DNA of 23,990 nt. Origin: a virus. Below are positions 627-21,412 of the stretch, piece after piece. Both the position numbers and the translations under genes were made by a program. How positions within the stretch are numbered: the first letter of the stretch is position 1; every line of letters starts with the position of its first letter. The notes beneath the pieces were generated by a model. That model saw nothing but the letters and a program-made list of their open reading frames with translations, had not been told where the DNA came from and made no database searches. The stretch lies in the IMG/VR virus record IMGVR_UViG_3300032323_000502, positions 1-23,990 of that record; one strand, 5' to 3'.

Positions 627-632
627 ATAACT

Positions 633-1256: not shown

Positions 1257-1265
1257 CAAGTATCT

Positions 1266-1342: not shown

Positions 1343-1350
1343 ATAAAAAC

Positions 1351-1425: not shown

Positions 1426-1431
1426 AACATC

Positions 1432-1507: not shown

Positions 1508-1513
1508 ATTAAC

Positions 1514-1590: not shown

Positions 1591-1599
1591 ATTAAATTC

Positions 1600-1780: not shown

Positions 1781-1869
1781 TGGCGGAGAGTGTGGGAATC
1801 GAACCCACTCACCGTATCACTACGATGACAGATTAGCAATCTGCTGCATTACCATCCTGCCCACTCTCC
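1781..1869 (-). tRNA. tRNA-Ser (GCT)
   Basis: Class II tRNA: acceptor GGAGAGT/ACTCTCC, GCCA, loop TTGCTAA (GCT) on GCAGA/TCTGT, long variable region, T-arm GTGGG/CCCAC. It begins 5 nt after the metallophosphoesterase stop codon. Confidence 0.92.
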
Positions 1870-1874
1870 ATAAC

Positions 1875-2456
1875 TTACATGGTTGGTCCATTACCATTCT
1901 TGAAACCAACCTCACCACCTTCGTCCTTGATTCTTTGAATCACGTCTTCAAACAAGATGGGTCTGAAATCTGTTTGTTCAACGCAAACGCAGTGGTAACG
2001 TGGATCAATAACTGGTGTAGCACCAGCATGCTTTTGAATCATAACACGATTAGTATGCAAGTGACCATGAATGTTAACACCGAAGCGACCCAATGAATCT
2101 GGGTGCAACGGAATATGACTCAAGATCATTCCATTCATTACGTGATATGCACGCAACTCTCTAAAGTGTTGACGGTATTCGTCATCACGAAAGATGTCAT
2201 GGTTACCACGAATCAAAACCTTATCACCATTCAACCTACGCATAATCCCTAAAGACTTGCGGTTAATAACAACGTCACCTAAGTGGTAAACCTTGTCAGT
2301 TGGCTTTACAGTTTCGTTCCACATCTTAACCATGGCTTCATCCATTTCTTCTGGATCAGTCCATGGGCGAATCTTTGTCACACCATCATCACGAGTGAAT
2401 CTGCATACACCAGCGTGACCAAAGTGTGTATCACTAACTAAAAATACACTTGGCAT
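1875..2456 (-). CDS. Calcineurin-like metallophosphoesterase
   Basis: A 193-residue cytoplasmic phosphoesterase. The family signature is complete: D-T-H near residue 9 (SDTHFGH), GD about residue 60 (LGDVV), GNHD about residue 84, a lone His in the SHIPLHP segment, and GHLH (NIHGHLHTN) near the centre. Together these build a two-metal site for cleaving phosphomonoesters or diesters. I chose the second in-frame ATG because AGGAG lies 6 nt upstream of it and directly abuts the first ATG (2462). The gene sits alone within the tRNA array, between Ser(AGA) and Ser(GCT), so it is probably co-transcribed with the tRNAs. The family fold is clear; its substrate (RNA end, nucleotide or other) cannot be read from sequence. 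Confidence 0.9.
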   Translation of the reverse strand: MPSVFLVSDTHFGHAGVCRFTRDDGVTKIRPWTDPEEMDEAMVKMWNETVKPTDKVYHLGDVVINRKSLGIMRRLNGDKVLIRGNHDIFRDDEYRQHFRELRAYHVMNGMILSHIPLHPDSLGRFGVNIHGHLHTNRVMIQKHAGATPVIDPRYHCVCVEQTDFRPILFEDVIQRIKDEGGEVGFKNGNGPTM

Positions 2457-2474
2457 ATACATCTCCTATAAAAT

Positions 2475-2564
2475 TGGCGGAAGTAGTAGGATTTGAACCC
2501 ACGAACCCTTTCGGGTTGACTGCTTTCTAGACAGTTGCCATAAACCAGACTCGACCATACTTCC
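2475..2564 (-). tRNA. tRNA-Ser (AGA)
   Basis: Class II tRNA: acceptor GGAAGTA/TACTTCC, GCCA, variable arm AACCC-GAAA-GGGTT, Ser-type D-arm. The anticodon stem ACTGT/GCAGT encloses CTAGAAA, giving anticodon AGA, unusual because A34 is rare in bacterial Ser tRNAs. Confidence 0.82.
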
Positions 2565-2574
2565 ATTGAACAAC

Positions 2575-2676
2575 AGGTTAGTTTGATTGCCACCGTGGCA
2601 CATCACCAGAATGCCTTTCGGCTGGTTGGTAATGCTGGAATCGAACCAGCTAATTTTGTTTTGCAGAACCTAACCT
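2575..2676 (-). tRNA. Circularly permuted tRNA-like gene (element E3)
   Basis: Read on the minus strand: outer stem strand AGGTTAG; GTTCTGCAAA family motif; T-arm GCTGG-TTCGATT-CCAGC; acceptor 3' strand ATTACCA, A, CCA; a linker hairpin GCC-GAAA-GGC; then acceptor 5' strand TGGTGAT; GT; D-arm GCCA-CGGT-GGCA; and the outer strand CTAACCT. TGGTGAT pairs with ATTACCA over all 7 positions (one G-T). The 3' half therefore precedes the 5' half. No anticodon can be assigned without knowing where the halves join. Confidence 0.55.
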
Positions 2677-2682
2677 AAAACT

Positions 2683-2774
2683 TGGCGGAGAGCAGAGGAG
2701 TCGAACCCCATCCCATTTCTGAGAACCGTGTTTTCAAGGCACGTCGCAGGACCAACCCCGCTGCATTACTCTCC
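2683..2774 (-). tRNA. tRNA-Ser (TGA)
   Basis: Class II tRNA: acceptor GGAGAGT/GCTCTCC, GCCA, loop CTTGAAA (TGA) on CGTGC/ACACG with a closing C-A mismatch, variable region with TTCTC/GGGAT pairing. Confidence 0.87.
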
Positions 2775-2780
2775 ATAATT

Positions 2781-2857
2781 TGGCGTCCCCCACAGGACTC
2801 GAACCTGCATCACCCAGCTTCGTAGACTAGTACATTATCCAGTTATGCTAAAGGGAC
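2781..2857 (-). tRNA. tRNA-Arg (ACG)
   Basis: Acceptor GTCCCTT/GGGGGAC, GCCA, loop CTACGAA (ACG) on CTAGT/GCTGG, T-arm GCAGG/CCTGT. Confidence 0.9.
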
Positions 2858-2867
2858 ATAAAACATC

Positions 2868-2967
2868 AGAATAGTTTGTTTGCAGTGGGATTTGAACCCA
2901 CAATCGTTTCTTTTGAAGAGAAATTGTCAACCATTGACAGTGCATTAATTTTTGCTGTAACTATTCT
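2868..2967 (-). tRNA. tRNA-Glu-like (TTC) nested in spacer element E6
   Basis: Inside an AGAATAG/CTATTCT outer stem lies a tRNA body: D-arm GTCA/TGAC, anticodon stem TTTCT/AGAAA with loop CTTCAAA (TTC), and T-arm GTGGG-TTCAAAT-CCCAC. Only 4 bp (TGCA/TGCA) of an acceptor remain and there is no CCA. The stretch after the first stem strand (TTACAGCAAA) matches the spacer-element family. It may be a pseudo-tRNA or a tRNA with an unusual split acceptor. Confidence 0.5.
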
Positions 2968-2973
2968 AAAACT

Positions 2974-3048
2974 TGGTACCTCGTGACGGGATTGAACCGC
3001 CGACCTTCTCCTTGTAAGGGAGTCACTCTACCGCTGAGTTAACGAGGC
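2974..3048 (-). tRNA. tRNA-Val (TAC)
   Basis: Acceptor GCCTCGT/ACGAGGT, CCA, loop CTTACAA (TAC) on ACTCC/GGAGA, T-arm GGCGG/CCGTC. Confidence 0.92.
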
Positions 3049-3055
3049 ATAAAAT

Positions 3056-3183
3056 TGGTGGGGACTGCGGGATTCGAACCACGCACAAGAACTTTTACAG
3101 AGTTGAGCTTTAGTATTGCGGAAACAATTCTACAGACAGAATTGATTTTTTGCTATGCTATGCTACCATTACATCAAGTCCCC
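3056..3183 (-). tRNA. Oversized tRNA-like gene (GTA-like loop) with internal insertion
   Basis: 128 nt with acceptor GGGGACT/AGTCCCC (7 perfect pairs), CCA, D-arm ATGT/GCAT, and T-arm GCG-GG/CC-CGC with one bulged T. Between the D-arm and a 4-bp anticodon-like arm AACT/AGTT (loop CTGTAAA) lies an extra segment of about 50 nt. That segment has hairpin CAATTCT/AGAATTG followed by TTTCCGCAATACTAA, like the start of the spacer elements. If the insert is retained this is probably not a normal tRNA. Confidence 0.5.
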
Positions 3184-3329
3184 ATTTTTCTGAAACACAC
3201 TTATCGGAATTGAACCGATGACCAGAAGGCAATGCACATCCAGCTATGCTCCACATAAACGCTTAGCCTCAGCGTCAGTATGCTTCAGAAAAATGACACA
3301 CAACTTATCACATTGTACTCCGTGTGTCA
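3183..3329 (-). pseudogene. tRNA remnant (possibly Arg TCT) within competing stems
   Basis: A T-arm ATCGG-TTCAATT-CCGAT (3203-3219) and a D-arm GCAT/GTGC are recognisable. Between them only 14 nt remain, including CTTCT, as if the 3' half of an Arg(TCT)-type anticodon arm were deleted. There is no matching acceptor and no CCA. A perfect 12-bp helix joins 3183-3194 to 3284-3295, and an 8-bp helix joins 3294-3301 to 3322-3329. Confidence 0.4.
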
Positions 3330-3338
3330 GGGAGAGTT

Positions 3339-3413
3339 TGGTGGACCGTGGGAGAATCGAACTCCCAACTGTGCCTTGCAAGGGCACTGTGTTCCCAGTT
3401 ATACCAACAGCCC
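3339..3413 (-). tRNA. tRNA-Ala (TGC)
   Basis: Acceptor GGGCTGT/ACGGTCC (two wobbles), CCA, loop CTTGCAA (TGC) on GTGCC/GGCAC, T-arm GGGAG/CTCCC. A second Ala(TGC) gene is at 3663. Confidence 0.9.
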
Positions 3414-3419
3414 ATAAGA

Positions 3420-3495
3420 TGGTCTCCGTAGAAGGATTCGAACCTTCACCACACCGCCCCAAACGGTGTACGCAACCTGATAACGCTTTACAGAG
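3420..3495 (-). tRNA. tRNA-Pro (TGG), second copy
   Basis: Acceptor CTCTGTA/TACGGAG, CCA, loop TTTGGGG (TGG) on CACCG/CGGTG. It diverges from the Pro gene at 167, so it is not a recent duplicate. Confidence 0.88.
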
Positions 3496-3502
3496 ATAAA
3501 CT

Positions 3503-3577
3503 TGGTACTGCGTATGGGTAACGATCCCATCTAGTCACCTTGAAAGGGTGATGACCTCACCTGAAGTCGAACGCAGT
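3503..3577 (-). tRNA. tRNA-Glu (TTC), second copy
   Basis: Acceptor ACTGCGT/ACGCAGT, CCA, loop CTTTCAA (TTC) on TCACC/GGTGA. The T-loop ATCGTTA lacks the usual T54. Confidence 0.85.
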
Positions 3578-3662
3578 GTAAATTAGTGGAAGTTCCGATA
3601 GCACCCATCGTCACTAACAACCGTTGAGAAGCCATGCATCAAAACAAGACTTCTATTTGCTC
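3578..3662 (-). other. Non-coding spacer with hairpins
   Basis: 85 bp with a TTAGTG/CACTAA stem enclosing CGAT/ATCG, and an AGAAG/CTTCT stem. No tRNA or coding sequence is recognised. Confidence 0.3.
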
Positions 3663-3737
3663 TGGTGGAGACCGTCGGTATCGAACCGATCTAGACAGCA
3701 ACCTTGCAAGGGTTACCCGTAGCCCTCTACTGCCCCC
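3663..3737 (-). tRNA. tRNA-Ala (TGC), second copy
   Basis: Acceptor GGGGGCA/GGTCTCC (G-T pairs and one mismatch), CCA, loop CTTGCAA (TGC) on TAACC/GGTTG. The weaker acceptor suggests partial decay. Confidence 0.83.
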
Positions 3738-3746
3738 AAATACAAC

Positions 3747-3805
3747 AGGATCCGCTTTCTTTTCAAGATAATGGTTTGAAATTTTTGAATTGCGGTAAGG
3801 ATCCT
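3747..3805 (-). repeat. Inverted-repeat spacer element E5
   Basis: AGGATCC/GGATCCT ends. The sequence after the first strand (TTACCGCAA) and before the last (GAAAAGAAAGC) matches E1 at 337-392. The central hairpin is TTTCAA/TTGAAA with a 9-nt loop. It is flanked by GTTTT and GTTGTA like the other members. Confidence 0.6.
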
Positions 3806-3810
3806 AAAAC

Positions 3811-3889
3811 TGGCTCCGTGTGTGAGGATCGAACTCACCTAATCATTGATTAACAGTCAAGCCCTTGCACCATGCTTGGGTTTCACGGA
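3811..3889 (-). tRNA. tRNA-Asn (GTT), second copy
   Basis: Acceptor TCCGTGA/ACACGGA with one A-A mismatch, GCCA, loop CTGTTAA (GTT) on a 4-bp TTGA/TCAA stem, large D-arm. Probably functional but imperfect. Confidence 0.82.
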
Positions 3890-3902
3890 ATAGAAATATA
3901 AC

Positions 3903-3968
3903 AGGAATGTTTTGACGAACATGTCAAATTAAAAGTTTGGTGTTCTTAAAAGTTGCTGAACCATTCCT
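3903..3968 (-). repeat. Inverted-repeat spacer element E4, tRNA-like
   Basis: AGGAATG/CATTCCT ends with the family motif GTTCAGCAA. Inside, GTTC/GAAC could be a D-stem, CAAA-CTTTTAA-TTTG an anticodon-like hairpin (TTT), and GAC-ATGTTC-GTC a small third hairpin. There is no CCA. It is the most tRNA-like of the short elements but still non-canonical. Confidence 0.5.
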
Positions 3969-3973
3969 AAAAC

Positions 3974-4048
3974 TGGCGATGCGTGGGAGAATCGAACTCC
4001 CGTCTTCGGATAGACAATCCGAGATAATAACCATTATATGAACGCACC
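3974..4048 (-). tRNA. tRNA-Asp (GTC), second copy
   Basis: Acceptor GGTGCGT/ACGCATC, GCCA, loop TTGTCTA (GTC) on TCGGA/TCCGA, T-arm GGGAG/CTCCC. Confidence 0.87.
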
Positions 4049-4054
4049 GTAACT

Positions 4055-4128
4055 TGGTCCTCTCGACAAGAATTGAACTTGTAATAAACGCTTATCAAGC
4101 GTACGTTATACCATTTAACTACAAGAGG
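4055..4128 (-). tRNA. tRNA-Ile (GAT)
   Basis: Acceptor CCTCTTG/CGAGAGG, CCA, loop TTGATAA (GAT) on ACGC/GCGT, T-arm ACAAG/CTTGT. Confidence 0.9.
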
Positions 4129-4138
4129 ATAATCTTTT

Positions 4139-4214
4139 TGGTGCCTCCTACTGGTATCGAACCAGTCTCTTCGGATTTTCAGTCCGACGCTTTCACCTGA
4201 TTAGCTTAAGAGGC
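4139..4214 (-). tRNA. tRNA-Phe (GAA)
   Basis: Acceptor GCCTCTT/AGGAGGC, CCA, loop CTGAAAA (GAA) on TCGGA/TCCGA, T-arm ACTGG/CCAGT. Confidence 0.92.
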
Positions 4215-4227
4215 ATACAATTTTCTT

Positions 4228-4302
4228 TGGGGTGAATAATGGGTTACGATCCCATACTACAACTTTCACAGAGTTGGGTGCTACCACTACACTATACTCA
4301 CC
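4228..4302 (-). tRNA. tRNA-His (GTG) with G-1 and leader/trailer helix
   Basis: Acceptor GTGAGTA/TATTCAC, discriminator C73 opposite an encoded G at -1 (the His hallmark), CCA, loop CTGTGAA (GTG) on CAACT/AGTTG. The acceptor helix continues outward: 5' leader TTTTCTTTGG pairs fully with CCAAAGAAAA at the 3' end, covering the CCA. Confidence 0.9.
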
Positions 4303-4313
4303 CCAAAGAAAAC

Positions 4314-4390
4314 TGGTGGGTCTGCTCGGATTCGAACCGAGAGTCTTACTGGTTAAAAGCCAGATGTTTTCGCCGTTAAACTACAAACCC
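4314..4390 (-). tRNA. tRNA-Lys (TTT)
   Basis: Acceptor GGGTTTG/CAGACCC, CCA, loop CTTTTAA (TTT) on TCTGG/CCAGT, T-arm CTCGG/CCGAG. Confidence 0.92.
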
Positions 4391-4394
4391 GTAT

Positions 4395-4470
4395 TGGTCC
4401 ACTCGCTGAGATTCGAACTCAGACCTCGATGATTAAGAGTCATGTACGCTACCATTAACGCCACGAGTGG
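4395..4470 (-). tRNA. tRNA-Lys (CTT)
   Basis: Acceptor CCACTCG/CGAGTGG, CCA, loop CTCTTAA (CTT) on ATGA/TCAT, T-arm CTGAG/CTCAG. Confidence 0.9.
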
Positions 4471-4480
4471 GTTGTCGTAA

Positions 4481-4552
4481 TTATTTGATTTTACGTGCCA
4501 ACCCAAGACCAATACGGGATCTTGAGCGACACTACTGTTTACCAGTTTTCAT
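4481..4552 (-). other. Shine-Dalgarno-led mini-ORF with in-frame TAG
   Basis: AAGGAG lies 6 nt upstream of ATG and encodes MKTGKQ, then TAG, then a 16-residue basic stretch (C-R-S-R-S-R-I-G-L-G and on) to TAA. It could be a 6-aa leader peptide, a small basic protein broken by a stop, or a readthrough product. No amber-suppressor (CTA) tRNA was seen in the window. It lies between the Gln and Lys(CTT) tRNAs. Confidence 0.3.
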
Positions 4553-4575
4553 GTCGTTCTCCTTGAACATTGTTA

Positions 4576-4659
4576 CCATATTGAATCACACTAAAAGGGA
4601 TCTAACGCCATACCCTCTACAGGGAGACGCTAAAAGAGATCTAATGCAATTCAATATGG
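4576..4659 (-). repeat. Inverted-repeat hairpin trailing tRNA-Gln
   Basis: An 11-bp perfect inverted repeat CCATATTGAAT/ATTCAATATGG whose first bases are the CCA of tRNA-Gln. Inside are two imperfect direct repeats of about 18 nt (CTAAAAGGGATCTAACGC-like) and a CCCT/AGGG hairpin. It could act as a processing or pausing structure. Confidence 0.55.
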
Positions 4660-4730
4660 CACCCGAGGTAGGAATCGAACCTACAATATCAGAGTCAAAG
4701 TCTGGTGTGTTACCACTACACTACTCGGGA
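4657..4730 (-). tRNA. tRNA-Gln (TTG)
   Basis: Acceptor TCCCGAG/CTCGGGT, GCCA, loop CTTTGAC (TTG) on CCAGA/TCTGA, T-arm GTAGG/CCTAC. It is the promoter-proximal tRNA of the array. Confidence 0.92.
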
Positions 4731-5315: not shown

Positions 5316-5444
5316 TTAGAGCACTTCGTACTCGTCTTTGCCAACACCACACTCAGGGCACTCGAAGTCTGCTGGCAGATCTTCCCACTTACCTTCAGTG
5401 GCTTCATCGTGGACATGTCCACATACTACACAAACGTGATCCAT
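5316..5444 (-). CDS. Rubredoxin
   Basis: A 42-residue iron protein carrying the two rubredoxin knuckles: CVVCG near residue 5 and CPECG near residue 33. The intervening acidic DLPADF segment is typical of the family. Four cysteines would bind one iron for one-electron transfer in the cytoplasm. AAGGAG precedes the ATG, which overlaps the stop of the rubrerythrin gene (TAATG), so the two are translationally coupled. In standard rubrerythrins this domain is the C-terminal part of the same chain; here it is a separate protein and the likely electron donor to its neighbour. Confidence 0.88.
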   Translation of the reverse strand: MDHVCVVCGHVHDEATEGKWEDLPADFECPECGVGKDEYEVL

Positions 5445-5914
5445 TATTTTGCTCCTTGTGATGTGTTAACAGTTTCCCAAATTTCTTGGTACGCTTCAGC
5501 ATGACGTTGCTCAACCTTCTTCAATGCATTGAATCGCTTTTCTGCCTTGGCAAGCACAGCACGGAATTCTTCAGCATGAGTCTGACTCTCTGCGATCTGA
5601 TGTGCTGCTTCACGTTCAGCTTCTTGGTTGCCTTCAACAACTGCTTCTGCTTGCATCTTAGGATACATTGTAGTGTACTCATAAGTCTCACCTTCGATGG
5701 CAAGTTCAAGTGCGTGCTTAGTTGATGGAGTACCAACCAACAATTCAAGATGACCCCAAGCATGTTTCAACTCTTGGTCAGCTGTGTGTTCAAAGTGTTT
5801 TGCAACATCTTCAAATCCTTCAGCACGTGCAAGTTTCGCAAAGTAGCGATACTTGATATGCGCCATTGACTCACCAGCCAATGCGCTTTCTAGGTTCTTT
5901 AGTGTAATCGACAT
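5444..5914 (-). CDS. Rubrerythrin, diiron domain only
   Basis: A 156-residue ferritin-like four-helix protein. Visible ligand motifs are the early Glu of LAGESMAHIKYRYF (about 15), ELKH (about 48-51), the Glu of EGETYEY, the Glu of THAEEF, and EQRH (about 134-137), which together give the two-iron site of rubrerythrins. The family reduces hydrogen peroxide using electrons from rubredoxin. The C-terminal rubredoxin domain is missing here and is encoded by the overlapping downstream gene. Its ATG directly follows the stop of the dCMP deaminase gene (TAAATG). An oxidative-stress role during infection is an inference. Confidence 0.9.
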   Translation of the reverse strand: MSITLKNLESALAGESMAHIKYRYFAKLARAEGFEDVAKHFEHTADQELKHAWGHLELLVGTPSTKHALELAIEGETYEYTTMYPKMQAEAVVEGNQEAEREAAHQIAESQTHAEEFRAVLAKAEKRFNALKKVEQRHAEAYQEIWETVNTSQGAK

Positions 5915-13074: not shown

Positions 13075-15096
13075 TTACTTACTTGTTGCATGGTAAACTC
13101 CGTCCCAATTGCTTGGCTTTCCTTCTTTCATTCTTGCAAGCATTAGTTCGTAGTAGTGTTTTAGAGGGGATTCCTCTTCCATTAGTTCTTGAGCTAACTT
13201 CATGGCTTTCTTCCAATCACCAGAATAGTAAGCATCAAGATACTGTTGATGTTTGTCACCAACTTTAGCGATGGCATAAATGTGCAGACCAATTGTCTTA
13301 CCTTTTACAGCGATACAATCTAGCTGAGCCACATCATAGACATGCTTCACTCGTTCTGCAGTATCTGGTCCGATAACTAACAGAACACCATAACCTTTCG
13401 TTTGCCCCTCTAGACGAGCAGCAGTCGAAACTGAATCACCAAGTACATCATAACCGTAACGATCGTTGGCACCAATGTTACCAATCAAAGTTGGACCAGT
13501 GTTGACACCAGCACCCATACCAACAGGTGGACGACCTTCTGCTTGAAGAACTTTATTGAACTCTTCAATAGCGTCAATCATTTCTAACGCAGTACGAACA
13601 GCAGTCACTGGATGGTCTACGTCGTCAACTGGTGCATTGTGAACGTGCAGCGATGCATCACCAATGAACTTGATAATACACCCACCGTTCTTCAACACTG
13701 GCTTGGACAATGCGTCCATGTATCGGTTCATCACGTTAGTCAAACCTTGCACGTCAGCACCAAATGACTCACCAAGTGTAGTAAAGCCACGCAAGTCAGT
13801 CATAACGATAGACAAGTCACGCTTCTCACCCTTTAGTCGTTCTGCTGCACCTTCAGGGTCTTCAGCCAATTGGTTAACGATGACTGGAGAAACGTATCCA
13901 CCGAACTGTTTCTTGATTTGCTGTTTCGCTCGCAACTCGACAAGGAACTTGACGATGTATCCATGGAAGCTAACAATCCCAATGGTAAGTATCGGGAACA
14001 CAGCATCAAGTAGATAGCTTGATCGAACAAAAAGTTGGAAGCCACCAAAGTAGGCGAGTGCTGCCAAAGCGATCGCAAAGATGTAGCCATGAGTAAACCT
14101 TGTTAGGTAGAGTGATAGAATTACAGCAATTACGATGAACGCCAACTCAGCTGGGAATGCCCAGTCAGGTCGGCTAATGTTTGTTCCACTGGTAAGAGTG
14201 TCTAATACTGCAGCTTGAAGGTGATGAGGATAGACTGCGCCGATCGGTGTAGCCACTGGGTTATTAAGACCTTTGGCTGTAAGTCCGACAATGACGATTG
14301 CTCCACCAAAGTCTTTTGGTAAAGCGGCAGCGGAATGCTCTCTTGGTTTGCTTGACCAGTCCACCCAAATTCTACCGAGTTCGTCTGTTGTGATTTTTCC
14401 GAACTGAGGAATTCTAACGGCTTCGATTCCTGACTCGTTGACCTTGACTTGAAAGCTAGGGTCTCCGCTGGCAACACGCAGTGTTTCCAAACTAATGCTT
14501 GGGTACAAGTCGCCATTTGCGTTGACGACCATTGGTACTCGTCTGGTAACGCCATCGATTTCTGGCAGAGTGTTAACAACACCAATGCCAGCAGCAGATT
14601 TATTGTATGGTGCATGGTTCGGAAGAATGCTTCCATATCTCACTCCAGTATCTTTTGGATCACCACCAACAACAGAAACTCCTGGACGAAACGCTTGTGT
14701 CACAGAGTCTGTAATCTGTGGGTTTACATCAGCAACATGTGGAAGAACCACAGGTGCTTGTTGCATTAAATTAGTTAATTGAGAATCTTGACCAAAGCGA
14801 TCACGCTCAGGCATATAGATGTTAAAGACAACCAACCCAGCACCAGAAGAATACAGATTAGCAACCAGTTCGGCATACTGTCCACGAGGGAATGGGAATT
14901 GTCCTTTTTGTCGAATATAGGCATCGTCGATATTGACCACATGAACCTGTTGGCTAGTGGTGCTCTCCTTACTTGTTATTAGTTGATCGAAATAACGAAG
15001 TCGCACTGACTCAACGAAAGAAGGATCAGCGATACGAATGCACAACAAGAGCACTAGCGTTACTAGAGCCATCCATGGTGATAATAATTTTTTCAT
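13075..15096 (-). CDS. CHASE2-domain class III adenylate cyclase
   Basis: 673 residues. One N-terminal membrane helix (4-22), a periplasmic CHASE2 sensor (about 25-305), three membrane helices (313-332, 337-357, 363-383) and a cytoplasmic class III cyclase domain (about 425-610). Metal-binding D434 (TDLRGFT) and D480 (FIGDAS) are present. The ATP-selecting pair K476 and D550 (YDVLGD) is present, as is catalytic R561. The usual transition-state Asn of the V-N-x-A-x-R motif is Ser557, so activity may be lowered or altered. The expected product is cAMP. The ATG at 15096 overlaps the upstream stop (ATGA) and gives a cleaner membrane start than 15138. Placing such a sensor in a phage is unusual. 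Confidence 0.9.
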   Translation of the reverse strand: MKKLLSPWMALVTLVLLLCIRIADPSFVESVRLRYFDQLITSKESTTSQQVHVVNIDDAYIRQKGQFPFPRGQYAELVANLYSSGAGLVVFNIYMPERDRFGQDSQLTNLMQQAPVVLPHVADVNPQITDSVTQAFRPGVSVVGGDPKDTGVRYGSILPNHAPYNKSAAGIGVVNTLPEIDGVTRRVPMVVNANGDLYPSISLETLRVASGDPSFQVKVNESGIEAVRIPQFGKITTDELGRIWVDWSSKPREHSAAALPKDFGGAIVIVGLTAKGLNNPVATPIGAVYPHHLQAAVLDTLTSGTNISRPDWAFPAELAFIVIAVILSLYLTRFTHGYIFAIALAALAYFGGFQLFVRSSYLLDAVFPILTIGIVSFHGYIVKFLVELRAKQQIKKQFGGYVSPVIVNQLAEDPEGAAERLKGEKRDLSIVMTDLRGFTTLGESFGADVQGLTNVMNRYMDALSKPVLKNGGCIIKFIGDASLHVHNAPVDDVDHPVTAVRTALEMIDAIEEFNKVLQAEGRPPVGMGAGVNTGPTLIGNIGANDRYGYDVLGDSVSTAARLEGQTKGYGVLLVIGPDTAERVKHVYDVAQLDCIAVKGKTIGLHIYAIAKVGDKHQQYLDAYYSGDWKKAMKLAQELMEEESPLKHYYELMLARMKEGKPSNWDGVYHATSK

Positions 15097-16328
15097 TGTT
15101 GTGTAACTGTCACAGAACACCCACCAACAGTAGCACAAGACTGTTGTATAGAATAAGTCTGATTAGTATTCCCTTGTTGCAGCACGTTAATATTTGACGC
15201 TCCACCATTATTCGTAACTTCAATACGAGCACCGTGGGCACCACCATCTTTCTGATCTAGCATAACTGTATGTCCATTTCCAGTTGCTTTGATATCCGAA
15301 TATTTAGTTCCGCTACCAGATTGTGTGCTACTTATTGCATTTCCATTTCCGTTGTTAGAAATAAAGCTAATCTTCTCGCCGTTCCCTGACTGGTTGTTCA
15401 CAATAGTATTATTATTGCCACTGATCAACATCTCAGAGAAATGTCCAGTACCAACTCCAGTGTTACCTTGATGGTTGTTAAGAGAGTTTCCAGAACCTTG
15501 TATGTGCACCTTAGCGTAGTTCTTAACTCCATACTGTCCGATGTCAACTATGTTAGAATCTCCTAGGACGGTGACGTCAACTAGGTGATAGAAACCAGAT
15601 TGAATAACATCAATGGAGTTGTAGCTGCCGATCTGGACAATATTGACTTCGTTCTTGTAAGTTTGTCTTGCTCTGGCTGCATTTACTTTAGCTTGTTGTT
15701 CTGCTGTGATAGTGGCAGAGTAAGATGGAGCAGGTGGAGGTGTTGCAGTTTCAGTTGCACCAGCAGTTCCTGGGTTGGCGATAGTGCCACCTGTTTGCTT
15801 GGTGCTTGTGGTAGTGTTTAGTGGATCGTATTGATAAGTTAGCTCACCAATCTGCATACTATCACAGTTAAGACCGCATCCCTGTCCAGCTTTAGTGGTA
15901 GGGAATACCATAAAGTAATAAACGTAGGCAGCAGTGTTATTGACGTTGATAGGTGTTGATGTGTTGTATCTACTGTCTGATAAAGTCAGAGAACCCTGTT
16001 GAATAAGAGACCAACTACTACCACTGTTACTTCCATACAACTTATAGCTTGTTGGATCACGACCACTAAAGTCGTTTGCTGTGGTTATTGTGAATGACTT
16101 TACAACTCTACCCTGATTCAACTCAACAGTGACACCAGCATTAAGTTTATCGAAGTTCAAGTATTTTGTGTATGGGTTTCCGTCGAATGCGTTTGAAGCA
16201 CCCTCACTATATGGGCTATTGTAGCTGGTTGGTGTAACACCTATGATGTTCAGATTAGAACTGTACAATGAGATGTTATCTGCATAAGCAGAAACCGACA
16301 TTAGAAATAAAACGAGAAACTTCTTCAT
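15093..16328 (-). CDS. Secreted discoidin (F5/8-C-like) domain plus curlin-repeat protein
   Basis: 411 residues. A signal peptide (1-16, cleaved after S-A-Y-A). A beta-sandwich of discoidin/F5-8-type-C kind follows (about 20-165), with A-F-D-G-N-P-Y-T and P-T-S-Y-K-L-Y-G-S-N motifs and two Cys. Next is a Thr/Pro linker (170-215), then curlin-like repeats (about 225-411) of the form Q-x-G-x-x-N with beta strands between, ending C-S-V-T-V-T-Q-Q. Discoidin domains often bind sugars. The likely role is an amyloid or beta-helical surface protein with a binding head, exported via the neighbouring CsgG channel (inference). ATGA-type overlaps with its neighbours. Confidence 0.8.
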   Translation of the reverse strand: MKKFLVLFLMSVSAYADNISLYSSNLNIIGVTPTSYNSPYSEGASNAFDGNPYTKYLNFDKLNAGVTVELNQGRVVKSFTITTANDFSGRDPTSYKLYGSNSGSSWSLIQQGSLTLSDSRYNTSTPINVNNTAAYVYYFMVFPTTKAGQGCGLNCDSMQIGELTYQYDPLNTTTSTKQTGGTIANPGTAGATETATPPPAPSYSATITAEQQAKVNAARARQTYKNEVNIVQIGSYNSIDVIQSGFYHLVDVTVLGDSNIVDIGQYGVKNYAKVHIQGSGNSLNNHQGNTGVGTGHFSEMLISGNNNTIVNNQSGNGEKISFISNNGNGNAISSTQSGSGTKYSDIKATGNGHTVMLDQKDGGAHGARIEVTNNGGASNINVLQQGNTNQTYSIQQSCATVGGCSVTVTQQ

Positions 16329-17407
16329 TTCTGTACAATGGTGATTGTAGAACCACCACCCTTGTTAATGTTCTGTAGGTAAGTAGTGCCATCTTGTAGA
16401 TATGAGACAGTCTTGTCTTCATCAACAGAAGTTCTTACACACGCAGTTTGACTGGCAGTATAACGACATACGTTGATCAATGACTGGTCGTCATTGTAGA
16501 AGTATGTTGCGCCAACAGCAGGGTTAAAGTTTGGCAGTAGTCTGCTATCAGCTGATAGGTGATCAGTCTTCAATGCTGCGCTCTCAGCATCAAGCATGTT
16601 ATACAAAAAGTTAATGTCTAATGCGTTTCGATCTAACTCTTTGAAGTTCTCTAATTGGTTTTCGTTTAGTGCACTGAATGCTAACAAGTCTACGTTTAGA
16701 TCATTTTTATCGAGAATGTTCTTTGATTCTACGATTTCTTTATCCTTAATTTCTTTCGGTGGCGCAATGATCAAAAGGTTGTTGATGTTCGCCTGATCGA
16801 TATTAACGATAATTGGAGATGTTGGGGGAGTTGATAATGACGATACCAGTGTGGCTTGATATGGTTGATCCATAAACACTTCACCAGCGTCATTTTTAAC
16901 AGAGATTGCGCCAGTTACACACTTGCGCTTATCGTTATCACAAGAAGGTAGTAGCACAATTAGGCTACGACCAAGTTCGTCCACTGTCATGGAAAAGTCA
17001 GTACCCCTAACCGCCACCGTGGCAGTAGGGGTATTGATTGCAACTTGTTGTGGATTTGTTTTTGCTATTTGACCACTTGCGTAACGAGCAGTGCCCATTA
17101 CAACTTTCATAGCTAATTTGCCTGAACCTTTCTTCGGATCATACACGAAGTCGTCAATAACGAGTTTTGATTGCTCGGTAATGTTGACTGTCGTGTTATC
17201 CTCGAAGGTTAGTTTTGCTTTCGCCTTAGCAGTAACCACCGTGTCATTCATCTCTACCCCAGAACCTACGTTGCTGGAGATTGATTTCTTGTCACGGACT
17301 ATTTCTGTTGGTCCAGATTGCTCTGTGACTTTACCTACAGCAGCCCAATTAGTTGGACTGTGTAACAGAAATAGTGTTACTATTGCCAGTTGAATTGATC
17401 GTAACAT
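16325..17407 (-). CDS. Exported FecR-domain protein with curlin-like C-terminus
   Basis: 360 residues. Signal peptide (1-23, ending N-W-A-A), FecR domain (about 30-145, with F-E-D-N-T-T-V-N-I and I-N-T-P-T-A-T-V-A-V-R-G-T), a helical low-homology middle, and a C-terminus G-G-G-S-T-I-T-I-V-Q-K. That end copies the curlin repeat S-G-S-T-I-T-I-L-Q-Q of the next gene upstream. FecR domains occur in periplasmic sensors and in proteins near secreted repeat proteins. It overlaps the upstream curlin gene by 59 bp, so the signal peptide is written in another frame of that gene's end. A partner or nucleator for curlin is an inference. Confidence 0.8.
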   Translation of the reverse strand: MLRSIQLAIVTLFLLHSPTNWAAVGKVTEQSGPTEIVRDKKSISSNVGSGVEMNDTVVTAKAKAKLTFEDNTTVNITEQSKLVIDDFVYDPKKGSGKLAMKVVMGTARYASGQIAKTNPQQVAINTPTATVAVRGTDFSMTVDELGRSLIVLLPSCDNDKRKCVTGAISVKNDAGEVFMDQPYQATLVSSLSTPPTSPIIVNIDQANINNLLIIAPPKEIKDKEIVESKNILDKNDLNVDLLAFSALNENQLENFKELDRNALDINFLYNMLDAESAALKTDHLSADSRLLPNFNPAVGATYFYNDDQSLINVCRYTASQTACVRTSVDEDKTVSYLQDGTTYLQNINKGGGSTITIVQK

Positions 17408-17945
17408 TTTGTGTAGTCATTCCAGATTGAGTCACTCCAACTGTGTTTAGGTTTCCACTAATTGCAGCATTCATAGTAGTAGTGCCAGTGGCAGTACTTG
17501 TATGAGTGATAGTATTAGTATCGCCAGTCACAGTGATGTTGCTGATGTGATTAGCACCTGCACCCAATGCTTGAGTGATGATGTTATCGTCACCTGTTAC
17601 TGTTTGAGTAATTGTAGAACCAGAACAGCCTGCAGAAGTAGTTGTACCACAGTCGATAGTTTGTGTATTACCACTACCGTTTGTTAGTACAGTTACGTCA
17701 GCTGCTGAACCATTCACGACCATTGCTAGGATGTTGCTGTCGCCAATCTGAGATAAGCTAACAGTATTAGAACCAGAGCCAATATAAAGACTATCAGTAG
17801 TCGTACCAGCAATATTGCCGATACCTTGCTGTAGGATTGTGATAGTAGAACCAGAACCAACTTGTTCAACATACACATCATTTGCATAAACGAAATTCAC
17901 GCCAAGCAATGCCATAACTAGAGCACTTGCCTTTAGTCGTTTCAT
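17349..17945 (-). CDS. Curlin-like secreted repeat protein (CsgA/CsgB type)
   Basis: 198 residues. Signal peptide (1-21, V-Y-A|N), then about seven imperfect repeats of 20-25 residues with G-S-G-S-x-x-x-x-x-x-Q-x-G-x-x-N or close variants. Asn, Gly, Ser, Thr and Gln dominate, with almost no charge, as in CsgA/CsgB amyloid subunits. The first repeats keep the flanking Gln and Asn best; later ones replace Gln by Thr. Two Cys occur near the centre (D-C-G, G-C-S). CsgG and CsgF are encoded immediately upstream. It would be the extracellular fibre subunit or nucleator, though assembly cannot be proved from sequence. Confidence 0.83.
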   Translation of the reverse strand: MKRLKASALVMALLGVNFVYANDVYVEQVGSGSTITILQQGIGNIAGTTTDSLYIGSGSNTVSLSQIGDSNILAMVVNGSAADVTVLTNGSGNTQTIDCGTTTSAGCSGSTITQTVTGDDNIITQALGAGANHISNITVTGDTNTITHTSTATGTTTMNAAISGNLNTVGVTQSGMTTQNVTINSTGNSNTISVTQSN

Positions 17946-17948
17946 TTC

Positions 17949-18740
17949 TTAATCCTTTGGATTTATTTTAGTTTTGAATTTCCATAATCCCTTACGTTCA
18001 CCATCTACAATCATTTCGTAGACAGCCTGTTCGATTGCTATACGAACAGCATAGGTAGTTGGTTCGTTTATCGCTTGACCATTTTCTAGTTCTAGCGACT
18101 TCGTCCCTGCATCAATAAAACGCAACACACCTACATTATGAGCAGTACTGTAAATTGTCTTACTTACAGCAGTGCTCAGCAATACTTCTCCTGAGTTCAC
18201 ACTTACTATTCTCATGGAGATTACAACTTCATCAACACGATACTGCTCACTTCCACCAATACCAAGGAAGCGTGCGCCATTACCACCAGATCGAATGTTG
18301 GAGTCATAGCCGATGATACCACCATCAACAATAACACCAGCCACCGTCATTGGCTTTAGAGGAGTTGCATTCTTGCCTTCGTAAACTTCTCGTTGATTAC
18401 GGATCAACTGACGCTCTTTAACAAGGTTGTCGAGACCAACACGTTCTACAACCTTGAACCATCCGTTGCTGTCTTGGAGTGCTTTAATGAGGAATACCTC
18501 AGCACCTTGCGTAACTGCTGAAGAGAACAAAGCGAGTTTTTCGTTTGGTTTCTTCTGACCAGTTTTGTCTTGGAATCCATAGACTGCAATGGTTATTGGT
18601 GGACCATCAATCTCAGGAAGTCTTTCGACCAGAGTTTTTCTTGCTTCTAGTTTAACTGGTTCTTCCTGCGATGCTTCCATGCGGATATTTGCACAACCAG
18701 TCAATATTAGAATTGACAATGCGATAAGAGTCTTTTTCAT
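17949..18740 (-). CDS. csgG: CsgG-like outer-membrane curli secretion channel
   Basis: 263 residues. Lipoprotein signal with lipobox L-T-G-C (Cys16), then the full CsgG body: I-A-V-Y-G-F-Q-D-K-T-G-Q, E-R-V-G-L-D-N-L-V-K-E-R, G-Y-D-S-N-I-R-S-G-G-N-G-A-R, G-V-L-R-F-I-D and a C-terminal G-L-W. E. coli CsgG forms a nine-membered lipoprotein pore for CsgA export. In the constriction loop, E. coli has Tyr and Asn before Phe; here the Phe (A-L-F-S-S-A-V) is kept but the others differ. The start at 18740 was chosen because it leads the lipoprotein signal and follows the csgF stop by one base. Confidence 0.93.
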   Translation of the reverse strand: MKKTLIALSILILTGCANIRMEASQEEPVKLEARKTLVERLPEIDGPPITIAVYGFQDKTGQKKPNEKLALFSSAVTQGAEVFLIKALQDSNGWFKVVERVGLDNLVKERQLIRNQREVYEGKNATPLKPMTVAGVIVDGGIIGYDSNIRSGGNGARFLGIGGSEQYRVDEVVISMRIVSVNSGEVLLSTAVSKTIYSTAHNVGVLRFIDAGTKSLELENGQAINEPTTYAVRIAIEQAVYEMIVDGERKGLWKFKTKINPKD

Positions 18741-18741
18741 C

Positions 18742-19197
18742 TTAGAATCCAAACGATGCGATAGGAACAGTCACGTTTGTTTGTGTACCGTTCGGTTCAG
18801 TGATTGTTAGCGTAACATTAGAGCCACTGTTGACCCATGAGATGTTTGTTCCCTGAAAGTCCATAGTGCCTTGTGTAGCACCACCTTCAGCGAACATTTG
18901 ATCAGCTAACTGTTTGGATAGTTGAGCGTAGATGCGAGACTCTACGTTGTTGAGGAACTTTGCCAAGTTTGTATTCTTAGCATCACGCTCCGCTTTATCT
19001 TGCGCAGCTTGTCGTTCATCTTTGAGTTTCTGCTTACGTGACGATTCTAACTGCTCAATAGTTAGAACGTGGTTGGAGTATCCTTGCCCATTAAACGCTG
19101 GGCTGATAAATTGATGCGTAAGTTCTGCGGCATAACTATTGCTTAAATTGACTATTAGCGCTGCCGTCAGGAATTTTCTTAAGTGATGCTTTAACAT
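18742..19197 (-). CDS. csgF: CsgF-like curli assembly factor
   Basis: 151 residues. Signal peptide (1-23, S-Y-A|A), then a mature start E-L-T-H-Q-F-I-S-P-A-F-N-G like E. coli M-T-F-Q-F-R-N-P-N-F-G-G, the segment that plugs into CsgG. A charged helix (50-95, K-D-E-R-Q-A-A) follows, and a C-terminal beta hairpin (V-T-L-T-I, T-N-V-T-V). CsgF couples CsgG to curlin nucleation at the outer surface. It precedes csgG directly, and its start overlaps the upstream gene by 62 bp. CsgE, CsgC and CsgD are not seen. Confidence 0.85.
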   Translation of the reverse strand: MLKHHLRKFLTAALIVNLSNSYAAELTHQFISPAFNGQGYSNHVLTIEQLESSRKQKLKDERQAAQDKAERDAKNTNLAKFLNNVESRIYAQLSKQLADQMFAEGGATQGTMDFQGTNISWVNSGSNVTLTITEPNGTQTNVTVPIASFGF

Positions 19198-19471
19198 CGT
19201 CGATCCCGTTCTTTTGGTTATCTTCCGAGGGCTTATACCCTTCTTTTTCTCTCAAAGCCAAAATAACATTCACTTTCTGATTCAAACGGATAAGGTCGTT
19301 ATCCAACATTCTAATGCGATCTATTAGATCAATCAGAACTTTACTAGCCTCACCTGTTACTGGTTTAATCTCAGTAGTCACCCATTGCCATACGTAGTAA
19401 ATAAAATACCCAAGACCGAATGCTGCTACAATAGGAAAACCAAACTTATTGACTAACTCTGCGATATCCAT
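19136..19471 (-). CDS. Single-TM protein with cytoplasmic coiled coil
   Basis: 111 residues: M-D-I-A-E-L-V-N-K-F-G-F-P-I-V-A-A then a helix (about 10-32), an amphipathic coiled coil (about 45-72), and a Lys-rich soluble tail. Its first 75 residues follow the same plan as the protein at 19562 (E-x-G-F-P-I-x-A-A ... Y-F), so the two look like paralogues. Function unknown. It sits just above csgF with a 62-bp overlap, so membrane anchoring of the curli-like apparatus is one idea only. Confidence 0.65.
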   Translation of the reverse strand: MDIAELVNKFGFPIVAAFGLGYFIYYVWQWVTTEIKPVTGEASKVLIDLIDRIRMLDNDLIRLNQKVNVILALREKEGYKPSEDNQKNGIDDVKASLKKIPDGSANSQFKQ

Positions 19472-19473: not shown

Positions 19474-19578
19474 TTATTCACTTTCAGATGGTAATGTATT
19501 ACATTCTTTACAGTCTTCGTCTTTGCGGTTAAGTGCACCACAAACTTTACATTCTTTAAGGTTAATCTCTACGTGCAT
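19474..19578 (-). CDS. 34-residue zinc-knuckle mini-protein
   Basis: Starts M-H-V-E-I-N-L and has two C-x-x-C pairs (C-K-V-C-G, then C-K-E-C), enough for one zinc site. Its start lies 17 bp inside the end of the upstream gene and its stop is 2 bp before the next ATG, consistent with an operon gene. No function is assigned. The ribosome site is weak. Confidence 0.55.
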   Translation of the reverse strand: MHVEINLKECKVCGALNRKDEDCKECNTLPSESE

Positions 19579-19837
19579 CACTTTGCTCTGCTCTTGCGAT
19601 TCTATCTAAATCAGGTGGAATCCCTAAAGCATGTGACACCTTTGTATCAATACGAATGACGTCATGATTCATGGCTGCTACTCGTTTGTCGAGTGCCATG
19701 ATGATACCCTTGATGGAGTTAACAGAACCTGTAACACCAGCAAGGATGAACTTTAGGGTAAGAAATACGAAATACCCACCAGCAATGGCTGCTGCAATGG
19801 GGAAGCCTAATTCGGCTACGAGTTTGAAAAACTCCAT
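19562..19837 (-). CDS. Single-TM protein with short coiled coil
   Basis: 91 residues with M-E-F-F-K-L-V-A-E-L-G-F-P-I-A-A-A, a hydrophobic helix (about 10-34), then a coiled coil (I-I-M-A-L-D-K-R-V-A-A-M) and a charged tail. It is built like the protein at 19136. The N-terminal topology resembles small phage holins or tether proteins, but no function is known. Confidence 0.62.
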   Translation of the reverse strand: MEFFKLVAELGFPIAAAIAGGYFVFLTLKFILAGVTGSVNSIKGIIMALDKRVAAMNHDVIRIDTKVSHALGIPPDLDRIARAEQSDARRD

Positions 19838-19898: not shown

Positions 19899-20990
19899 TT
19901 ACGGAGTGATTCTTCTACCTGCCGAGTCGTATTCGACACCTTTAGTGTGTTGTAGGTTATCAACCTCTTGCACTATGGTATCGGCAGGAACTACCTCAAC
20001 TTTAGCATCATCTTGTACTTTCACATCTTCTTTATGAAAGAATTTGTGGATTATAGACTTAGCCTCATCTGGTAGTGGATCTTGCTTCTTAAATAACTGC
20101 TCAGACCAAGAACTAACTTTCGCTGGTTCATCTGGTTCTTCTTTCAACTCTTCCAAAGAAGGTTTTTCATCTACATCTACAACCCAAGCATCTGGCTTGT
20201 CTGTTTGATTTTCTTTATCTTCTTTGTCTTTACGCATCTGCCAGTTGGCAGCGATAAGCATGAGAACGGCTAGTGGGTCAAACACTAGCACAATCATCAT
20301 GATAACGATTCTTACTGCTTTTTCGAGGACTTCTTCGTTGGCGCTGTCTTCGTAGATGAGCGCAGCGATGTACTTGATGGGTCCAACTTCAGCTTCGACT
20401 TTTCGGACTTCTGAGGCGATTGGGGCACGCTCTTCGTTGAGTTTTGCGATCTTGGCTTGCGTGGTGCCGATTTCTTGGAGGATTCTGGCTCTGTCTTTTT
20501 GCTGAGATCTACGGATGGCAATACTTCGTTCGACTCCACTGGTTCCACTATTGGCGCCAGTGCTGGTGCCACTTCTGGAGATGGTTTCGTTAACTTGCGA
20601 ATCCAGTTGATTAAGTTCTGCACGATTTGCATTTAGGTTTTCCTTTTCTGTTTTGATTTTTTCGTCGATGAGTGATAGCTTGGCTGCTACATCACCAGTT
20701 GGAACTGCTTGATCCAAGTGTGCCTTAGACAAGTACCCAAAGATACCCATGGATGTTAACAGCATCAGTACGACTAGCGCAATGCTGAAGTAAACCATCA
20801 TTAGCTTTGGGATTTGTTTCCAAGAGCGATAGAGCCATGAAGCCACTACCAACTTTGAAACCTCTAACAATGACCCCATGATAAAAATAGGAGTGGCTGC
20901 AGCTGCGAAGATAGCAACCAAACCCATGATTGAGTAATAAGCAGCGATTGCTGATAACCCAAATGCTGTTGCGAATAATAAGTACGTCAT
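19899..20990 (-). CDS. Large phage membrane protein with coiled coil
   Basis: 363 residues. Membrane helices at about 5-24, 28-48 and 63-86 (T-S-M-G-I-F-G-Y-L-S-K follows), a soluble coiled-coil domain (105-210, rich in Glu, Lys, Arg), a fourth helix (about 227-249) and an acidic tail with Pro (255-363). I recall similar proteins in aquatic T4-like phages; no function is assigned. It starts ATGA-overlapping the GIY-YIG-like gene. The sequence around 20312-20632 also reads as an open frame in another phase, but codon context favours this one. Confidence 0.72.
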   Translation of the reverse strand: MTYLLFATAFGLSAIAAYYSIMGLVAIFAAAATPIFIMGSLLEVSKLVVASWLYRSWKQIPKLMMVYFSIALVVLMLLTSMGIFGYLSKAHLDQAVPTGDVAAKLSLIDEKIKTEKENLNANRAELNQLDSQVNETISRSGTSTGANSGTSGVERSIAIRRSQQKDRARILQEIGTTQAKIAKLNEERAPIASEVRKVEAEVGPIKYIAALIYEDSANEEVLEKAVRIVIMMIVLVFDPLAVLMLIAANWQMRKDKEDKENQTDKPDAWVVDVDEKPSLEELKEEPDEPAKVSSWSEQLFKKQDPLPDEAKSIIHKFFHKEDVKVQDDAKVEVVPADTIVQEVDNLQHTKGVEYDSAGRRITP

Positions 20991-21412
20991 ATTTTCCCTT
21001 TAATGTGAGAGCCATGAACCCTCACGGAGATTTGTCCATTATAAAAGTCGTCGCTCTCTAAAACTCTTCTTGTAAACTGCTCACGTGCTTCAATGTATGA
21101 GCACTCAGCTTTTGATTTACAGAAGAACAGAATCTCTCTGGTAAAGTTTTCCTTACCGAGCAATTCGATGTCTTTGTTTAGTTCAATAGATGAACCATAG
21201 TACTCCATCCAATCAGAGTCAATCTTTGACTTGATCTTCTTTTTCTTTTTAGTTCCATTCTTCAAAGTTACAGTCTTGATGGACGTCTTTGAAAACTTGG
21301 CTAACTTCTTACCAATGTACATGCGACTGTTGGCTTTGTTCGTAATCAAATAAACAAAGCCAACACAATCGTCTGGTAAGGATTCAACAATCTCGTTTTC
21401 GTATAACCACAT
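20987..21412 (-). CDS. GIY-YIG-like nuclease
   Basis: 141 residues. The N-terminus carries V-G-F-V-Y-L-I-T-N followed by R-M-Y-I-G-K-K, the GIY-YIG pattern with V-Y-L and Y-I-G. A Lys-rich insert K-K-K-K-K-I-K-S follows, then W-x-E-Y-Y-G-S-S and a conserved E-A-R-E-Q-F near the end that could supply the metal-binding Glu. It could be a phage DNA nuclease (homing or host-DNA type). First gene of the long block, 30 bp after a hairpin. Confidence 0.65.
   Translation of the reverse strand: MWLYENEIVESLPDDCVGFVYLITNKANSRMYIGKKLAKFSKTSIKTVTLKNGTKKKKKIKSKIDSDWMEYYGSSIELNKDIELLGKENFTREILFFCKSKAECSYIEAREQFTRRVLESDDFYNGQISVRVHGSHIKGKI

What the first reader, a model, noticed from the sequence alone, without database searches (positions are those of the whole stretch)
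13075..19197. Phage-borne curli-like secretion locus linked to a cyclase
csgF and csgG homologues are followed by a curlin-repeat protein, a FecR-domain protein, a discoidin-curlin fusion and a CHASE2 adenylate cyclase, all with overlapping ends in one direction. csgG/csgF have, to my recollection, been noted in some pelagimyophages. The full set with two curlin-type substrates and a cyclase may be a distinct system, and could be a cell-surface or superinfection device or a virion fibre.
Basis: partly seen in the sequence, partly recalled or inferred. Interest (0 to 1): 0.85.

Follow-up and report, generated by a model that had tools for sequence, protein, structure and literature searches.

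The report
Phage-carried curli secretion and cyclase module
A bacterial virus carries a complete, already published kind of gene set for exporting amyloid-type (curli) fibre proteins from the cell it infects; comparison with about 200 related viral loci shows that two small membrane proteins always belong to the set and that its FecR sensor ends in a piece of fibre-like protein, which suggests how the fibre could report to the accompanying cyclase.

Summary
In detail: six same-strand, mostly overlapping genes at 13075-19197 encode CsgF, CsgG, a curlin, a FecR protein, an F5/8C(discoidin)-curlin fusion and a CHASE2 cyclase, on a phage fragment. The kind is published: phages HTVC008M and Melnitz hold the same six genes in order, and PMC9599517 described them in pelagiphages. 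So this is a new member of a known kind. Added here: (i) two small membrane proteins upstream always belong (26/26 TM-centred loci with enough context hold the cyclase); they sit where the literature places a "histidine kinase" but have no kinase domain. (ii) FecR ends in a curlin-like tail in essentially every complete phage copy, and in none of 35 complete FecR proteins outside the module. (iii) The second curlin has a Cys-pair cap (72/73, versus 0/147 in the first) and a swappable head (F5/8C, PA14, others, none). (iv) Three alphaproteobacterial assemblies carry the csg-FecR-cyclase operon without the TM pair. (v) It occurs in contigs up to 364 kb. Best model, inferred: infected cells export a fibre, and curlin-tailed FecR couples it to the cyclase. 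A virion fibre is unlikely, because all exported parts carry Sec signals.

The parts
19562..19837 (-). TMb: 91 aa, N-terminal transmembrane segment plus coiled coil (phrog_18771)
   Evidence: phrog_18771 7e-36; relatives next to the module; 26/26 TM-centred loci with enough context have the cyclase
19136..19471 (-). TMa: 111 aa paralogue of TMb; overlaps csgF by 62 nt
   Evidence: phrog_18771 3e-34; no histidine kinase match in 28 relatives
18742..19197 (-). CsgF, with signal peptide and the N-terminal F-x-S-P-x-F...G segment
   Evidence: PF10614 2.3e-17 over nearly the whole profile; segment seen in all viral CsgF with an intact N-terminus
17949..18752 (-). CsgG outer-membrane lipoprotein pore (lipobox LTGC; the likelier start is the second ATG, 18740)
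   Evidence: PF03783 2.3e-53; E. coli CsgG 8e-51; G19-C20 invariant in 11 phage CsgG
17349..17945 (-). Cur1: first curlin-repeat protein, 198 aa
   Evidence: Curlin_rpt 1.2e-4; relatives in 86/86 viral loci with enough flank
16325..17407 (-). FecR-domain protein, 360 aa, Sec signal, no lipobox
   Evidence: PF04773 3.5e-11; model residues 52-210 match PupR cell-surface signalling domain 6ovk, Z 15.4, rmsd 2.6, 135 aligned
16328..16510 (-). curlin-like C-terminal tail of FecR (residues 300-360, six predicted strands)
   Evidence: model; profile comparison with the Cur1 C-terminus E 1.4e-5 versus 0.08-0.55 for other FecR segments; terminal-strand statistics
15093..16328 (-). Cur2: F5/8C head plus curlin solenoid plus Cys-pair cap, 411 aa
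   Evidence: PF00754 5.8e-9, PF07012 6.8e-6; model with 16 strands about 12 residues apart at residues 226-410
15894..16226 (-). F5/8 type C (discoidin) head of Cur2
   Evidence: Pfam residues 35-145; replaced by PA14, unassigned sequence or nothing in relatives
15096..15155 (-). conserved Cys-pair C-terminal cap of Cur2 (C398, C404)
   Evidence: 72/73 Cur2-position curlins versus 0/147 Cur1-position curlins
13075..15096 (-). CHASE2 sensor plus class III nucleotide cyclase, 673 aa
   Evidence: CHASE2 2.2e-40, Guanylate_cyc 2.2e-16; catalytic D, K, D, R kept in 58/58 viral copies; start

Best explanation
A phage-encoded, self-contained type VIII (curli) export module for the infected Gram-negative cell. 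Shown by sequence: a CsgG pore and CsgF with its N-terminal CsgG-binding type segment, two Sec-exported curlin-repeat proteins, an exported FecR protein, a CHASE2 cyclase with its main catalytic residues, and two dedicated small membrane proteins. Inferred: Cur1 builds the fibre; Cur2, capped by a Cys pair and carrying a swappable head, is a minor nucleator or tip subunit that gives the fibre its binding specificity. FecR keeps its folded domain in the periplasm while its curlin-like tail engages the pore or nascent fibre. It thus reads whether export or assembly is under way and passes this to the periplasmic CHASE2 domain of the cyclase, which raises cAMP (or cGMP) in the infected cell. TMa/TMb assist or regulate the cyclase in the inner membrane. 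The benefit to the phage (aggregation of hosts, or blocking rival phages) is unresolved. Rough likelihoods: identity of the parts 0.97; fibre exported by the infected cell 0.65; FecR-to-cyclase coupling 0.45.
For: Family membership of each part; obligatory linkage in both directions: csgG-centred, FecR-centred CsgG and CsgF 63/63, cyclase 53/54. FecR tail: similar to the Cur1 C-terminus by profile comparison, modelled as six strands at roughly 11-residue spacing, pLDDT 83-89, terminal strand in 77/92 copies (11 of the 15 exceptions are contig-truncated) against 9/1744 other viral ORFs, 68/71 in a FecR-centred set, absent from 35 complete bacterial FecR proteins outside the module. FecR and CHASE2 cyclases are neighbours elsewhere (Campylobacterota; PMC9239204). 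Cyclase catalytic residues conserved. TM genes stay with the cyclase even when on the other strand.
Against: No clumping was seen in Melnitz infections by microscopy or cytometry under the conditions used (PMC9004378). No CsgE or CsgC in the locus. Pfam's curlin model does not reach the FecR tail, so the tail rests on motif, profile and model evidence; a profile E-value of similar size arose from signal peptides (CsgF against Cur1, 7.7e-5). FecR-CHASE2 contact is not shown. Host and expression timing are unknown.
Confidence: 0.5

Rival explanations
1. Lysis timing: CsgG (with or without CsgF) is used as a pore that depolarises or permeabilises the envelope, as proposed for Melnitz (pinholin or secretin model); the curlin genes are secondary.
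For: Proposed in PMC9004378 from gene order and modelling. TMa/TMb are small membrane proteins with very weak holin-like and YvrJ-like matches.
Against: CsgG is an outer-membrane pore, whereas holins act on the inner membrane (established knowledge). The premise that csgA/csgB are lacking is doubtful: the Melnitz record annotates two curlin-repeat genes, and a curlin is present in every viral locus with enough flank. CsgF keeps its N-terminal segment. It does not explain FecR with a curlin tail or the Cur2 heads.
Confidence: 0.1
2. Regulatory reading: FecR and the cyclase are iron or nutrient sensors that switch the curli genes or host genes through cAMP, without touching the fibre.
For: Proposed in PMC9599517; the FecR domain folds like that of PupR, an anti-sigma regulator.
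Against: This FecR has a Sec signal at its N-terminus and no cytoplasmic anti-sigma part, and no FecI or FecA gene lies in the cluster. The curlin tail is specific to the module.
Confidence: 0.2
3. Uptake channel: the CsgGF pore lets nutrients or cofactors into the infected cell.
For: Suggested in PMC7029224 and PMC9599517; CsgE gate absent.
Against: Does not need the curlins, which are as conserved as the pore, nor the Cur2 heads.
Confidence: 0.08
4. Virion fibre: the curlins and the discoidin fusion are appendages of the phage particle.
For: Head swapping in Cur2 resembles that of tail fibres; a weak PHROG tail-protein match covers the head only.
Against: All exported parts start with signal peptides for periplasmic export, and an outer-membrane export pore is encoded with them. 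No structural genes lie around the locus in this window.
Confidence: 0.04

Closest known systems
Phage type VIII (curli) module of pelagiphages: HTVC008M (KC465899) and the HTVC023P-type podoviruses (PMC9599517)
   Same: In HTVC008M the same genes in the same order: TMb, TMa, csgF, csgG, curlin, FecR, second curlin, CHASE2 cyclase
   Different: CsgG 51% and cyclase 35% identical to HTVC008M; here the second curlin has an F5/8C head where HTVC008M has PA14; backbone genes only distantly related to known phages
Methylophilales phage Melnitz (MZ577097; PMC9004378)
   Same: Same eight genes in the same order
   Different: CsgG 48% and cyclase 40% identical; the second curlin has no recognised head domain in Melnitz; the paper reports csgA/csgB lacking although the record annotates two curlin-repeat genes
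csg operon with FecR and CHASE2 cyclase in alphaproteobacterial assemblies (Hyphomonas TMED17 L060; Caulobacteraceae L047, L048)
   Same: csgF-csgG-curlin(s)-FecR-cyclase; CsgG groups with the phage CsgG against 70 other bacterial CsgG, SH-aLRT 99
   Different: No TMa/TMb and no curlin between FecR and cyclase; very rare
E. coli csgBAC-csgDEFG curli system
   Same: CsgG/CsgF pore and curlin-repeat substrates
   Different: No CsgD, CsgE or CsgC here; adds FecR, cyclase and two membrane proteins
FecR - CHASE2 adenylate cyclase clusters of Campylobacterota (PMC9239204)
   Same: FecR protein next to a CHASE2 cyclase
   Different: Those clusters have a phosphodiesterase and a TPR protein; no curli genes are mentioned there

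Membership tests
Phage T8SS (curli) module of PMC9599517 | csgF, csgG and a curlin-repeat gene adjacent in a phage genome | tested here: met
Phage T8SS (curli) module of PMC9599517 | FecR follows the first curlin, then a second curlin and an adenylate cyclase | tested here: met
   order as
Phage T8SS (curli) module of PMC9599517 | one or two histidine kinases precede csgF | tested here: inconclusive
   two small TM-coiled-coil proteins occupy that place, without kinase match; the sequences called HK in that paper were not available here
Curli / type VIII secretion (bacterial) | CsgG lipoprotein pore homologue | tested here: met
   PF03783 2e-53, E. coli CsgG 8e-51, lipobox cysteine invariant
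Curli / type VIII secretion (bacterial) | CsgF with the N-terminal segment that binds CsgG | tested here: met
   PF10614 2e-17 and conserved segment in relatives; binding itself not tested
Curli / type VIII secretion (bacterial) | curlin-repeat substrates | tested here: met
   PF07012 in both curlins; solenoid model for Cur2
Curli / type VIII secretion (bacterial) | amyloid fibre formed on the cell surface | not testable with these tools
   needs expression and imaging
Class III nucleotide cyclase | two metal aspartates, base lysine, transition-state arginine | tested here: met
   58/58 viral copies; the Asn position is Ser in the window (Ser in 25/58, Asn in 33/58)
FecR of the FecI/FecR/FecA system | N-terminal cytoplasmic anti-sigma part, with FecI and FecA partners | tested here: not met
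   Sec signal at the N-terminus, FecR domain only, no FecI or FecA gene in the cluster
Histidine kinase (for TMa/TMb) | HisKA or HATPase domain | tested here: not met
   91 and 111 aa; no such match in 28 relatives

The most novel reading that the evidence does not exclude
FecR is itself a fibre-coupled subunit: its folded domain stays in the periplasm while its curlin tail threads the CsgG/CsgF pore or nucleates the fibre, so that fibre assembly or load is read directly and relayed to a CHASE2 cyclase with the TM pair. This would be an amyloid-to-cyclic-nucleotide sensing circuit, carried by phages and by a few alphaproteobacteria.
Probability: 0.3. Interest if true: 0.85.

Novelty: new member of a known kind. 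Interest (0 to 1): 0.55.

Why it matters
Phage curli modules are widespread and their purpose has been open since 2020. The comparison here corrects the parts list (two dedicated small membrane proteins, probably what was reported as a kinase; two curlins where one paper reported none), shows that FecR carries a fibre-type tail and that the second curlin is a capped, head-swapping subunit, and finds a bacterial counterpart. Together these turn 'function unclear' into specific experiments: does the fibre talk to the cyclase, and what do the exchangeable heads bind?

Tried and rejected
T4 late promoter (TATAAATA) search: no exact site, 15 one-mismatch sites versus 19 expected, so no timing evidence. 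Sigma-70-type promoter scan at chance level; terminator-like sites 16 versus 10.4 expected, not pursued. Rfam: only tRNAs, no riboswitch like the one reported for Melnitz. Pfam's curlin model on FecR proteins: no hit. The AlphaFold model of Cur2 did not resolve the F5/8C head (pLDDT about 30, 12 sequences), and a PDB fold search with it gave nothing below 1e-3. The first part of the FecR model resembles an adhesin anchoring domain (5ix9, Z 6.8); Z under 8 may be only a common arrangement, so I use it only as a lead. A search for more bacterial csg-FecR-cyclase operons in 385 class-level and 299 order-level genomes found only the seed genomes among full-length high-scoring matches. A recent pelagiphage transcriptome paper has no curli data. 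Considered and rejected: host chromosomal segment; phage contamination as the source of L060 and L047 (their neighbours are ordinary bacterial genes). L041-L046 and L100 are probably phage contigs in bacterial bins, so they were not counted as bacterial.
Full report
OBSERVATION. The window is a 23,990-base IMG/VR virus record with phage genes (nrdA/B, T4-type RNase H, DsbA, a SegE-like endonuclease) and 27 tRNA genes. On the minus strand, in order of transcription, lie TMb 19562-19837, TMa 19136-19471, csgF 18742-19197, csgG 17949-18752, curlin 1 (Cur1) 17349-17945, FecR 16325-17407, the F5/8C-curlin fusion (Cur2) 15093-16328 and the CHASE2 cyclase 13075-15096. The cyclase start is better placed at ATG 15096, which overlaps the Cur2 stop as ATGA. 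The 59-nt overlap of Cur1 and FecR recurs in relatives, which suggests translational coupling (inference).

KNOWN OR NEW. In annotated phage genomes, CsgG relatives occur only in HTVC008M (two records), four Melnitz isolates and one short unannotated Salmonella-phage record. HTVC008M and Melnitz hold the same set in the same order. PMC7029224 described csgF/csgG with a curli-associated protein in pelagimyophages and proposed 'sibling capture'. PMC9599517 described CsgF, CsgG, CsgA/B, FecR, a second CsgA/B and an adenylate cyclase in myo- and podo-type pelagiphages, with one or two 'histidine kinases' upstream. PMC9004378 proposed a lysis-timing pore and reported csgA/csgB lacking in Melnitz, although its record annotates two curlin-repeat genes. 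The kind is therefore known.

HOW UNIVERSAL. Scans of viral contigs gave 37 loci with the window CsgG and 80 with a CsgG profile (576 relatives before the cap). Among 100 distinct CsgG, counting only loci with enough flank, CsgF is present in 96/96, Cur1 in 86/86, FecR in 74/74, the cyclase in 53/55, TM genes in 21/21. Seen from FecR: CsgG and CsgF 63/63, cyclase 53/54. Seen from the TM genes: 26/26 loci with at least 19.5 kb of context hold the cyclase and 21/26 hold csgG. The scans were capped at the best 80, so these counts describe the nearer relatives. Several contigs are of jumbo-phage size (for example L014 317 kb, L021 344 kb, L031 349 kb, L137 364 kb); a paper search found none describing curli genes in jumbo phages.

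TM PAIR. TMa and TMb are paralogous proteins of about 90-110 aa with a GFPI-type N-terminus, one transmembrane segment and a coiled coil (the last two read from the sequence). In many large contigs they lie on the opposite strand next to the cyclase rather than before csgF, so their closest tie is to the cyclase. They have no kinase domain. Their place and copy number match the 'histidine kinase, sometimes two' of PMC9599517; that identity is my inference.

FECR TAIL. The FecR domain (residues 52-210 of the model) is a true FecR fold (PupR, Z 15.4, rmsd 2.6, 135 aligned). After a variable linker the last 60 residues form six predicted strands at about 11-residue spacing with good confidence. 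A profile of the last 45 residues aligns end to end with the C-terminus of Cur1 (E 1.4e-5); FecR middle and N-terminal segments do not (0.55, 0.08). A control pair (CsgF and Cur1) gave 7.7e-5 in the signal-peptide region, so the E-value alone is not proof. The terminal strand pattern is present in 77/92 phage FecR, 11 of the 15 exceptions being truncated contigs, against 9/1744 other viral ORFs, and in 68/71 of the FecR-centred set. None of 35 complete bacterial FecR-domain ORFs outside the module ends this way; many of the best matches are near the N-terminus of very large proteins.

CUR2. The curlin downstream of FecR ranges from 86 to 803 aa. Its curlin part is modelled as a solenoid of 16 strands, and its C-terminus carries a Cys pair in 72/73 cases, against 0/147 in the Cur1 position. 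The head is F5/8C here and in L004, PA14 in HTVC008M, L011, L352 and L394, unassigned in others, and absent in Melnitz. This looks like a minor, capped subunit with an exchangeable head (inference).

CYCLASE. Both metal aspartates, the base lysine and the transition-state arginine are kept in 58/58 viral copies; the Asn position is Ser in 25 of 58, the window included, and the second base-contact position is T, D or S. It is probably active; adenine versus guanine specificity is not settled.

BACTERIAL COUNTERPART. Three alphaproteobacterial assemblies (L060 Hyphomonas, 705-kb contig; L047 and L048 Caulobacteraceae) have csgF-csgG-curlin(s)-FecR-CHASE2 cyclase without TMa/TMb; the neighbours of L060 and L047 are ordinary chromosomal genes. 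[quoted passage not shown] these are exceptions. In a quick CsgG tree, phage, phage-like bin contigs and these three separate from 70 other bacterial CsgG with SH-aLRT 99; long branches meet there, so the exact branching and the direction of transfer are unsure. Samples of 385 and 299 related genomes added none.

MECHANISM. Shown by sequence: the parts list, signal peptides, conserved catalytic and lipobox residues, linkage, tail and cap. Inferred: export of a fibre by the infected cell, FecR reading the fibre through its tail, relay to CHASE2, cyclic-nucleotide output, and the purpose. The FecR-CHASE2 neighbourhood in Campylobacterota (PMC9239204) supports the pair as a signalling unit. The absence of clumping with Melnitz (PMC9004378) is the main evidence against a visible fibre effect.

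VERDICT. Observation confirmed; interpretation partly supported; new member of a known kind, with an improved parts list and a testable coupling hypothesis.

Noticed in passing
window 1-4730: A dense array of 27 tRNA genes (ARAGORN), with two further Rfam tRNA matches at 1-66 and 2880-2944, broken by a metallophosphoesterase gene at 1875-2462.
   Followed up: no
window 19899-20990: 363-aa protein with several transmembrane segments and a coiled coil (weak DUF4407/tetraspanin matches) just upstream of TMb; relatives lie near the module in many loci but not always adjacent.
   Followed up: partly
window 20987-21412: SegE-type GIY-YIG endonuclease between nrdB and the membrane/curli genes; the best matching PHROG is labelled NAD synthetase, which looks like a misannotation.
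   Followed up: no
window 5444-5914: Rubrerythrin/ferritin-like protein beside a dCMP deaminase in a phage genome.
   Followed up: no
L041-L046, L100: Contigs binned in bacterial genomes (Rhodobacteraceae, Flavobacteriaceae, Pirellulales, Pelagibacter, Sphingobacteriales) carry phage-type curli modules, five of seven with the TM pair; probably phage contigs misassigned to bins.
   Followed up: partly
L230-L258: In Alphaproteobacteria the FecR domain nearest to the module's FecR often sits near the N-terminus of very large ORFs (900 to nearly 7000 aa), perhaps an anchoring role in giant surface proteins.
   Followed up: partly
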